Shown piece by piece: positions 24,848-27,615 of a stretch of 64,000 bases of DNA. Both the position numbers and the translations under genes were made by a program. The notes under the pieces are model-generated. The model had not been told where the DNA came from. It did no database searches and saw only the letters and a program-made list of their open reading frames with translations. Origin of the DNA: Galerina marginata (taxonomy: Eukaryota; Basidiomycota; Agaricomycetes; Agaricales; Galerinaceae); the NCBI GenBank assembly GCA_023014335.1, contig JAECYW010000003.1:2542001-2606000 (forward strand), read 5' to 3'. The first letter of the stretch is position 1. Each line of letters opens with the position of its first letter.

Positions 24848-27615
24848 ATGGTTCTCTTTCCGAACTCTTTTGGCGACATTATCGCTGCTGCTAGCCTTGC
24901 CCTCTCTATTTACAAAGCTCTCAGCAACAGTGCCGGTGCCACCTACGAGTATCAATGCTTGATCGACGAAATATATTCTTTCCATCTTGCTCTGCAGTCG
25001 GTCAACGTGCTGTCAATCTTGGCGACTACTCCCAGTGAAGTTCTCGTGCAGAATATCAAAGCAGAAGCTGCATCCTGCCGAAAATTTCTGGAGAAGTTTT
25101 GGGATCGCATCAAATCGTATCAAAAGGCTCTCGGTGGTGGCGGAAGGGACTGGAAGGACTCTTGGCGCAAAATCGGTTGGGGCCTTTTCAAGTCTAATGA
25201 AGTTGCAGACTTCCGGCAGAAGATTTCTCAACGCAAACAAACGATTGCGATATTTCTGAGCGAACTGGGAATGTAAGTAGGAATTCGTGTTTTAAGTTGC
25301 AAGGGTTATCGTCACAAGAACTCATGATTCATTGTATCAGATCCCTAACTTCCAACTACGGCGAAGATACTCGGAAGGCGCTAGCGGCACTGACGACCAT
25401 TTTGAAGGAGATACTCCTTGTACACAAGCAGCTACCTCAACGGGTGGGGTACGGCTTAGATAACGCCGTGATTCTGCAAGACGTATTTGGAAAATCAATT
25501 ACAGTGATATGGGAGTTTTGTTTCTCGCCTGACGTACGCTTCTTGAATGTATTTCTTTCTGTCACTGACATCAAGCACAGGCACTACACACCTTTCTGAC
25601 CACGTACTTTGCAAAAAAGATTGGGCAGGATTATGTTGAGCGGCGCAAATATAGCATTTCCTGTGCAAATGGCAAGTCAATCAGGAAGAAAGCTTCCTCA
25701 CAAAACCACTCAATCATGGAATTTGATCCCGTTGCATGGCGTTCAGTGGTGAAGAAAGGAGTGGTGCTTACCATGAGCATGGAGGTGAAAAAGATAAAAC
25801 TGTGGTACACTCATGACTATGCAATACAGGAATCTGAAAAAACATGCCCACGATGTGACTGGACTGAGATTGGTGTAATGCTGGATGGAGAATGGCTAGA
25901 GTGGTAAGCATATGTTCAGCTATTCTATTTCCTTTCCATTTCATGTTGTTTGCATTGTAGCCGTCACTGTGGAAGGCGTTTTACATGGGATGATAGGCCA
26001 GTAGATGTCAAAGAGGCACCTGTGCCGGATCCAAGACTTGTAGATTTTCGGAACATCAAAGTAGTGCCAGTTACACAGGTAAAAGGCAAAGTCAATATGA
26101 ATGGGAAAGAGGCTCACTAGATCTGAATTTCATGGTTTCTAGTATTTACAAACTGTATGTAAATCTTTTGATTGATTACTGAGTACCTGTCTGACCATTG
26201 ATTCTGCTTTCTCATTTCCAGGAAGTATGTGAGCTTTTCAATTGACTACTGATTGTTTCTCTGACCACTCCATCTTGTTTTTTTCATTTTCAGGAAGTAC
26301 GTGAGCTTTTCAATTGAATACTGACTGCTGCTCTGACCAGTGACTACTCCATCTTGCTTTCTCATTTCCAGCTAGTATCAGTAGTATGTTAGGCTGAAGA
26401 TTGAAAACTGACCACCACTCTAACAATTCCATCTTGCTTTCTCAATTCCAGGGGGTATGTGAGCTTTGTGATTGAGCACTGACCACTGCTCTAACCAATC
26501 TGTCTTGCTTTCTTATTTTTAGATTGTGTGTGACTCACATGAGCCTCTAGATTGATCACTGACCACTGCTCTGACCATTCCATCTTGCTTTCTCATCTTT
26601 AGTTTGTAGGTGATCTTTTTTACTAAACACCAACTGCTACCCTGACCAATCCATCTTGCTTTCTCAATTCCAGCGAGTATGTGAGCTTGTTAATTGATCA
26701 CTACTGTTTTCCTGACTATTCCATCCTGCTTTCTGATTTCCAGGATGTATGTGGGCTTGTTAATTGACTACTAAGCACTGCTCTGACCATTTCATCACTT
26801 ATTTCCAGAGAGTACACAAGCTTCTTGATTGTTCACTGACCACTGCTCTGACCTTTCCATCTTGCTTTCTCATTTCCAGCTTGTATGTGGGCTTGTTAAT
26901 TAAGCACTGACCACCTCTCTAACCAATCTGTCTTGCTTTCTCATTTTCAGAATGTGTGTGAGCCTCTTGATTGGCCACTGGCCACTGCTCTGACCATTCC
27001 ATCTTACTTTCTCATTCCAGCATGCACTTTCTAGATTAAAGCCAGTATGTGAGCTTGTTGATTGACCACTGATTGCTTTCCTGAACATTCCATCTTGCAT
27101 TTTCAGTTTCTGGAGGTGCACTTTTGTTGCCTGCACATATGTGAGCTTGTTAATTGACTGCTTTTTTATTTTTAGGATGTACGTGAACTTGTTGATCTGC
27201 TATTCACTGCCCATCAGACAAATTCATCTTAACCTTTCATCTTTAGCCAGTAAGTTCACATGTAGATCATCATAAATGTGCCACACTCACCAACCTCTCC
27301 TTTCTGCAAACCTGCAGTGGGTATGTATAATTTAGGATCAGCTTTCCTACATTATTTTTGCTTTTTACTCAATATCTTCTTCTACTTTGGGTAGGCATCT
27401 CAGCTGAATGTGTTTTCCTGGTTCTGTTTACTGATGTTCATTGTATACCTGACTTTAAGTTCAACTTGCATAGGACATAGCAGAAGACAAAGAAGCTAGT
27501 CAATATGAGTATTTTGAAAGTTCAGAGGAAGAAGATGCCTGTCGATGTAAGTATTGTGAAAGTTTGTGCTTATTTCTTACTGACAAAATTTATAGTCGAA
27601 GAAATTCTCTCATAA
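24848..27615 (+). CDS. Ubiquitin-like-domain/zinc-ribbon protein with a microexon array
   Basis: Conventional exons are 24848-25272, 25341-25533, 25581-25903 and 25961-26078. Small in-frame exons follow within 26143-27409, then 27474-27546 and 27596-27615 (about 420 residues if all are used, 383 if all are skipped). The N-terminus (SFGDIIAAASLALSIYKALS) resembles the helical N-terminal domains seen in fungal NACHT and ubiquitin-like-domain proteins. The middle (NAVILQDVFGKSITVIWEF through GVVLTMSMEV) fits the fungal ULD_2-type ubiquitin-like domain. Next comes a zinc ribbon, CPRCDWTE with CRHCGRRFTW; its second Cys pair is completed only by splicing at 25903/25961. The C-terminus is acidic (EYFESSEEEDACRF, then EEILS and stop). 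If the intron at 26079 is retained, a stop at 26118-26120 ends the protein at 366 residues. Function unknown. Confidence 0.7.
26079..27473 (+). repeat. Tandem array of intron-like units separated by multiples of 3 nt
   Basis: About 16 units of about 70 bp follow each other. A typical unit starts GTATGTGAGCTTGTTAATTG, carries ACTGACCACTGCTCTGACCA with branch-site-like CTGAC twice, then CCATCTTGCTTTCTCATTTC and CAG. Between CAG/TAG and the next GT lie exactly 3 nt at 26222 (GAA), 26294 (GAA), 26372 (CTA, or 12 nt), 26452 (GGG), 26523 (ATT), 26603 (TTT), 26674 (CGA), 26744 (GAT), 26809 (AGA), 26880 (CTT), 26951 (AAT), 27176 (GAT), 27247 (CCA) and 27318 (TGG). Longer in-frame pieces are 12 nt at 26143, 24 nt at 27021, 9 nt at 27107 and 15 nt at 27395. 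The donors at 27116 and 27410 are weak. Intron cores are conserved while the trinucleotides vary freely, and none is a stop codon. Confidence 0.85.

What the first reader, a model, noticed from the sequence alone, without database searches (positions are those of the whole stretch)
26079..27473. Tandem array of spliceable units separated by 3-nt microexons
Roughly 16 consecutive about 70-bp units each look like a complete fungal intron: a GTATGTGAG-type donor, a CTGAC branch-like site, a pyrimidine tract and a CAG. The gap between one unit's AG and the next GT is 3 nt in 14 cases and a multiple of 3 in the other four (12, 24, 9 and 15 nt). The flanking conventional exons are both in phase 0, and the frame reads through to an acidic C-terminus and stop. 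Two donors (27116, 27410) are weak. The gene could be cut into single-codon exons, or the whole 1.4 kb could be removed at once or stepwise. I know of no described gene built this way.
Basis: partly seen in the sequence, partly recalled or inferred. Interest (0 to 1): 0.95.

Follow-up and report, generated by a model that had tools for sequence, protein, structure and literature searches.

The report
Fungal genes with hypervariable single-codon exons
A mushroom gene family appears to encode a variable protein stretch one amino acid at a time, in 3-letter exons separated by similar short introns, which would let that stretch be reshuffled codon by codon.

Summary
At 26079-27473 about 68-nt GT..AG introns are separated by exons of 3 nt (13) or of 12, 12, 24 and 9 nt. 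It is not unique: this 69-Mb agaric genome holds at least eight such arrays, with 177 three-nt exons, each between a ubiquitin-like (ULD_2)/zinc-ribbon body and a C-terminal exon. In a parse free of frame, 185 of 185 internal exons are multiples of 3, though 33 of 174 internal introns differ from 68 nt by a non-multiple of 3. No triplet is a stop (0 of 177). In the longest array the codon is far more diverse than the introns (0.69 vs 0.10). A cDNA-like homologue has a peptide there, ending in the same W. Best reading: singly spliced codon-sized microexons encode a hypervariable peptide, probably for self/non-self recognition. Such microexons are reported for truffle NACHT-ANK genes (Iotti 2012, seen only as cited), so this is a new variant: another protein family, in Agaricales. 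No RNA from this species was available.

The parts
24848..25272 (+). exon 1: start ATG, N-terminal domain (PigL_N, PF17111, below cut-off here)
   Evidence: open frame joins exon 2; Pfam 24.6 bits vs cut-off 27.2; Galerina homologue P0001 29.2 bits, above cut-off
25341..25533 (+). exon 2
   Evidence: joins in frame; homologues colinear
25581..25903 (+). exon 3: ubiquitin-like domain ULD_2 (PF22893) and first CPRC knuckle of a putative zinc ribbon
   Evidence: 33.3 bits vs cut-off 24.5
25961..26078 (+). exon 4: second knuckle CRHC and ...FRNIKVVPVTQ, ending in phase 0
   Evidence: conserved in 6 further paralogues
26079..26142 (+). first intron of the array (64 nt)
26143..26154 (+). 12-nt exon TATTTACAAACT (YLQT)
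26222..26224 (+). microexon GAA
26294..26296 (+). microexon GAA
26372..26383 (+). 12-nt exon CTAGTATCAGTA, or 3-nt CTA with a weaker donor
26452..26454 (+). microexon GGG
26523..26525 (+). microexon ATT
26603..26605 (+). microexon TTT
26674..26676 (+). microexon CGA
26744..26746 (+). microexon GAT
26809..26811 (+). microexon AGA
26880..26882 (+). microexon CTT
26951..26953 (+). microexon AAT
27021..27044 (+). 24-nt exon (HALSRLKP)
27107..27115 (+). 9-nt exon TTTCTGGAG followed by a weak donor GTGCAC; irregular unit
   Evidence: ATATGTGAG in place of GTATGTGAG a little downstream
27176..27178 (+). microexon GAT
27247..27249 (+). microexon CCA
27318..27320 (+). terminal microexon TGG (W); TGG in 7 of the 8 arrays (the diverged array D1 ends CCC)
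27474..27546 (+). C-terminal acidic exon (DIAEDKEASQYEYFESSEEEDACR)
27596..27615 (+). last exon FEEILS and stop TAA

Best explanation
The array is the variable region of a protein-coding gene. Each ~68-nt unit is a spliceosomal intron, probably recognised by intron definition, and each 3-nt spacer is a one-codon exon. Splicing them one by one leaves a variable peptide (13 to 55 residues in the eight arrays; 32 in the window gene) between a ULD/zinc-ribbon body and a short C-terminus (the sequence is shown; the splicing is inferred). Because introns of one array resemble each other, unequal recombination and gene conversion can add, delete and permute whole 71-bp codon cassettes without breaking frame or splice sites (one ~1-kb internal duplication is shown); selection for changed residues then keeps the codon diverse (inferred). 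The protein has a ubiquitin-like fold and possibly a HeLo/MLKL-like helical bundle, so the likely role is a fast-diversifying intracellular recognition or cell-death protein of the fungus (inferred). Skipping of in-frame microexons could add isoform diversity (untested).
For: Eight arrays at the same place in paralogous genes. Parse free of frame: 185 of 185 internal exons are 3n, 177 of them 3 nt, while 45 of 174 internal introns are not 68 nt and 33 differ by a non-multiple of 3. Each of the 8 arrays has 18 or more stops in every frame if read through. 0 of 177 triplets are stops; for 165 deduplicated triplets permutation expects 9.4 and the share of 20000 permutations with none is printed as 0.0000. 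In the longest array, B2 (54 of its 55 units used), codon positions have diversity 0.65-0.72 against an intron mean of 0.099 and maximum of 0.503, so 0 of 68 intron columns reach the codon; the codon/intron ratio is 1.8-7.0 over the eight arrays (162 of 177 units used). The diverged array D1 (intron diversity 0.40) still holds an unbroken chain of 16 junctions. Branch-like CTRAY in 156 of 174 internal introns, YAG in 173, GTRNGY in 162. Flanking exons under constraint: dN/dS 0.23-0.45 in the 20 of 21 pairs where dS could be computed (5 of those 20 involve B2, with dS 1.5-2.2). P0010 (289 aa, contig 1486 nt) runs uninterrupted across the conventional intron sites and carries ...FRNIRILLVER-SLLWVELVELLALARRREKW-CQAEAEEANRFVEIS; its W aligns with the terminal W of the window gene and the four paralogues in that alignment.
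Confidence: 0.75

Rival explanations
1. The array is removed as a whole (exon 4 spliced to the tail exon, directly or by recursive splicing); the units are a decaying intronic minisatellite whose 3-nt spacing is just part of the repeat.
For: Exon 4 and the tail exon are both in phase 0, so skipping the array keeps the frame. Units are clearly tandem repeats.
Against: 0 stops in 177 triplets; codon more diverse than introns in each of 8 arrays; D1 keeps 16 junctions in a row although its introns differ widely; non-3n length changes lie in introns; P0010 carries a peptide there.
Confidence: 0.1
2. Alternative splicing rather than germline cassette change is the main source of diversity: exons are included or skipped in many combinations, as reported for Tuber nank genes. 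(Overlaps with the best explanation.)
For: The exons are all in-frame and interchangeable; precedent cited in PMC4986451, PMC10197012 and PMC3689799.
Against: Codon diversity and cassette duplication show germline change in any case. No transcript set here to measure skipping.
Confidence: 0.35
3. The genes are pseudogenes or non-coding and the pattern is a relic.
For: Irregular units in the window array; a D1-like relative on C13 has a stop in its ULD match and one remnant unit.
Against: Open spliced frames across 7 genes with conserved tail, dN/dS 0.23-0.45, no stops in triplets.
Confidence: 0.04
4. The codon variation is made by a dedicated targeted mutation process rather than by selection acting on ordinary mutation and recombination.
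For: In B2, pairs of units whose flanking introns differ at 4-8 of about 136 sites have different codons in 135 of 163 cases, mean 1.82 of 3 nt changed.
Against: Identical flanks carry the same codon (11 of 11 pairs in B2); no mutator element was looked for; selection plus concerted evolution suffices.
Confidence: 0.05

Closest known systems
[quoted passage not shown] 2012 (doi 10.1016/j.funbio.2011.11.009; paper itself not seen, only as cited in passages of PMC4986451, PMC10197012, PMC3689799)
   Same: Many codon-sized (3-bp) exons in an expanded fungal family tied to non-self recognition proteins.
   Different: There: ascomycete, NACHT plus ankyrin repeats, alternative splicing reported. Here: Agaricales, ULD_2/zinc-ribbon protein with a PigL_N-like N-terminus and no NACHT or ankyrin match, and a hypervariable codon between similar introns; alternative splicing untested. 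Whether truffle codons are also hypervariable is unknown to me.
Podospora anserina HNWD WD-repeat NLRs
   Same: High internal repeat identity maintained by concerted evolution with a few hypervariable positions.
   Different: There the repeat is protein; here the repeat is almost wholly intron and only one codon per unit is protein.
Schistosome microexon genes (only search listings seen; details recalled)
   Same: Chains of small exons that keep the frame.
   Different: Animal genes; no hypervariable single-codon cassettes known to me.

Membership tests
Tandem codon-sized microexon genes (as in Tuber nank) | many consecutive exons of one codon | tested here: met
   at sequence level: 177 of 182 internal exons in eight arrays are 3 nt after 3 CTGAAT exons were dropped
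Tandem codon-sized microexon genes (as in Tuber nank) | alternative splicing of the microexons | not testable with these tools
   no RNA data for this genome
Tuber nank (NACHT-ANK) family | NACHT domain | tested here: not met
   no NACHT in Pfam scans of three window ORFs covering exons 1, 3 and 4 or of P0001, P0002, P0010, P0024, P0021
Tuber nank (NACHT-ANK) family | ankyrin repeats | tested here: not met
   same scans
ULD_2 ubiquitin-like domain (PF22893) | Pfam match above cut-off | tested here: met
PigL_N (PF17111) N-terminal domain | Pfam match above cut-off | tested here: inconclusive
   window exon 1 24.6 bits, below 27.2; homologue P0001 29.2, above; P0002 27.0, below
HeLo/MLKL-like four-helix bundle | shared fold | tested here: inconclusive
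HeLo/MLKL-like four-helix bundle | membrane-directed cell killing | not testable with these tools
   needs an experiment in a laboratory fungus or yeast

The most novel reading that the evidence does not exclude
A codon-cassette diversity generator: similar introns serve as recombination substrates that shuffle single codons in the germline, and combinatorial skipping of 13-55 in-frame microexons adds isoform diversity, giving these fungi a large repertoire of recognition peptides on a cell-death protein.
Probability: 0.35. Interest if true: 0.93.

Novelty: new variant of a known kind. Interest (0 to 1): 0.8.

Why it matters
It suggests that exons of one codon can be used as modules, with the intron as the conserved repeat and the codon as the variable site: the reverse of an ordinary coding repeat. 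It makes testable how a spliceosome handles up to 56 introns in a row with 3-nt exons between them (array B2), and it points to a family of putative fungal recognition proteins whose variable region ordinary gene prediction can miss: public models of Galerina P0002 and P0023 and Gymnopilus P0012 read into array-like introns.

Tried and rejected
A profile search of PDB sequences gave designed-TPR, ribosomal L37Ae and other weak matches and was not used. The P0010-based model is low confidence (mean pLDDT 55.4) and was not searched. P0009 looked by eye like a transcript with one retained unit; the test did not support it. P0028's tail was marginal as read-through of a unit (43 vs shuffle 95% 39, max 45). 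Foldseek gave no match at E <= 0.001. Literature: ten searches; phrases for 3-nt or single-codon exons gave 0 papers, and the only tandem codon-sized case I saw in the listings and passages is the Tuber one. Passages only were seen of PMC4986451, PMC10197012, PMC3689799, PMC11121469, PMC3274533 and PMC3778014; Iotti 2012 was not seen itself.

Full report
What is there. The window lies in a 69.3-Mb genome of 43 contigs. The nearest protein relatives found are from Agaricales (order recalled): Galerina marginata P0001 is 77% identical to the window product, and the product of paralogue B1 is 97% identical to P0001 over 145 residues, so the species is a Galerina or close to one (inference). The gene has four ordinary exons (24848-25272, 25341-25533, 25581-25903, 25961-26078) that join in one frame: an N-terminus weakly matching PigL_N, a ULD_2 ubiquitin-like domain above cut-off, and a CPRC...CRHC pair that I call a zinc ribbon by eye. 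Then comes the array, then a C-terminal exon 27474-27546 and a last exon 27596-27615.

Paralogues. A DNA search with the array found further arrays on C1 (four genes within about 90 kb: A1-A4) and C43 (B1, B2); a second search with part of B2 returned the same loci. Such searches score only the best candidates, so counts are lower bounds. A protein search with the ULD exon found 7 matches, each of the 7 beside an array. A Pfam ULD_2 search found 13 matches: 6 of these 7 (A2 was missed) plus 7 more. Of these 7, one on C20 has an eighth array, D1, one on C13 has a stop in its match and a single remnant unit, and five show no chain of junctions in the 1.3-2.5 kb examined downstream. So 8 of the 14 ULD genes found carry an array. 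A DNA search with D1 found only itself, yet D1 has the same design: 16 three-nt exons between a CSFC...CSC(N) exon and an acidic end. D1 differs in its terminal microexon (CCC, not TGG) and in its tail.

Is it splicing-shaped? A dynamic-programming parse with hand-set splice-site scores, in which exon length had no frame preference but longer exons were penalised, gave 185 internal exons, all multiples of 3: 177 of 3 nt, three of 6, two of 12, and one each of 9, 18 and 24. GT and AG ends were required. The three 6-nt CTGAAT exons (window, A2, A3) lie in what I take as the final intron and were dropped, leaving 182. Internal introns number 174; 129 are 68 nt, 45 are not, and 33 of those differ by a non-multiple of 3. 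So length changes fell in introns while exons stayed in frame. YAG ends 173 of 174, GTRNGY starts 162, and a CTRAY branch-like motif sits in 156 (only 8 of 15 in D1). Controls reach chains of at most 2, the arrays 8-36.

Is it coding? None of 177 triplets is TAA, TAG or TGA, and the five longer exons hold no in-frame stop; for the 165 triplets left after removing those with identical 40-nt flanks, permutation of bases by position expects 9.4 stops and gave none in a share printed as 0.0000 of 20000 trials. Cassette duplication makes triplets partly dependent, so the true significance is weaker. Pre-array exons 3 and 4 are constrained: dN/dS 0.23-0.45 for 20 of 21 pairs; for the window gene versus B2 dS was not computable, and other B2 pairs have dS 1.5-2.2. 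The tails of the seven related genes end in RFEEILS or close to it after the same last intron (window, A1-A4, B2); B1 reads RFEIMR.

Hypervariable codon. In B2 the three codon positions have diversity 0.65, 0.72 and 0.69; the intron mean is 0.099 and the maximum 0.503. In the other arrays the codon/intron ratio is 6.2 (A2), 3.2 (A4), 2.7 (A3), 2.5 (B1), 2.4 (A1), 2.1 (window) and 1.8 (D1) (162 of 177 units entered, those with irregular neighbours left out). The number of about 68 intron columns as variable as the least variable codon position is 7 in the window array, 16 in A2, 6 in A3, 4 in D1, 1 in A1 and in A4, 0 in B1 and B2. So the contrast is strong in B2 and A2 and modest elsewhere, the window included. 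Codon pairs one base apart are synonymous in 79 of 434 cases over the eight arrays; I computed no expectation. B2 contains a 15-codon run repeated 14 units on, with 8 differences in 1094 intron bases, a recent internal duplication. In B2, identical flanks share the codon (11 of 11 pairs), while pairs with 4-8 flank differences differ in codon in 135 of 163 cases. I read this as concerted evolution of cassettes with selection for altered residues; a mutational cause is not excluded.

Transcript-like evidence from relatives. P0010 (JGI source, 1486-nt contig, named 'ribosomal protein S14' by its source) is uninterrupted across positions where relatives have introns and, between the zinc-ribbon exon and the conserved tail, has a 20-residue stretch ending in W (the left boundary set by alignment). 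The W aligns with the terminal W of the window gene, A2, A3, A4 and B1, the five of eight products put into that alignment. Its contig type is unknown. Its stretch scored at the 95th percentile of shuffles against array introns, so it is not clearly non-intronic by that test. Among 67 proteins returned in three searches it is the only one that spans both zinc knuckles and the tail. Public models of Galerina P0002 and P0023 and Gymnopilus P0012 end in translations of array-like introns, above every one of 100 shuffles (67, 83 and 52 against maxima 48, 50 and 40), so such arrays probably exist in those species.

Prior art. Passages of PMC4986451, PMC3689799 and PMC10197012 say that Tuber melanosporum STAND/NLR genes diversify by alternative splicing of codon-sized or 3-bp microexons, citing Iotti 2012. 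The kind is therefore known. What I did not find described in the ten searches made is this protein family with such exons, their occurrence in Agaricales, or the contrast between similar introns and hypervariable codons; most subscription papers are not in that library.

Noticed in passing
G000:C1 paralogues A1-A4: The acceptor of the intron between exons 3 and 4 reads TTGGAG instead of a YAG in 4 of the 6 genes printed, yet the frame requires its use.
   Followed up: no
L051 (array B2, C43:66900-71900): The five GTACGG donors listed for this array follow GAA (4) or AAA (1) when read by eye, suggesting that these codons spread with their own downstream intron.
   Followed up: no
window:22860-23781: Open frames just upstream (187 aa at 23218-23781 among them) that may be another small gene; not identified.
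   Followed up: no
window:20315-21904: A 529-aa open frame that looks by eye like an HSP60-type chaperonin with a GGM-rich C-terminus (no family search made).
   Followed up: no
L059 (C13:1061401-1062700): A D1-like relative: its ULD match holds a TAA and only one unit (CCG microexon) of an array seems left, a possible degraded copy.
   Followed up: partly
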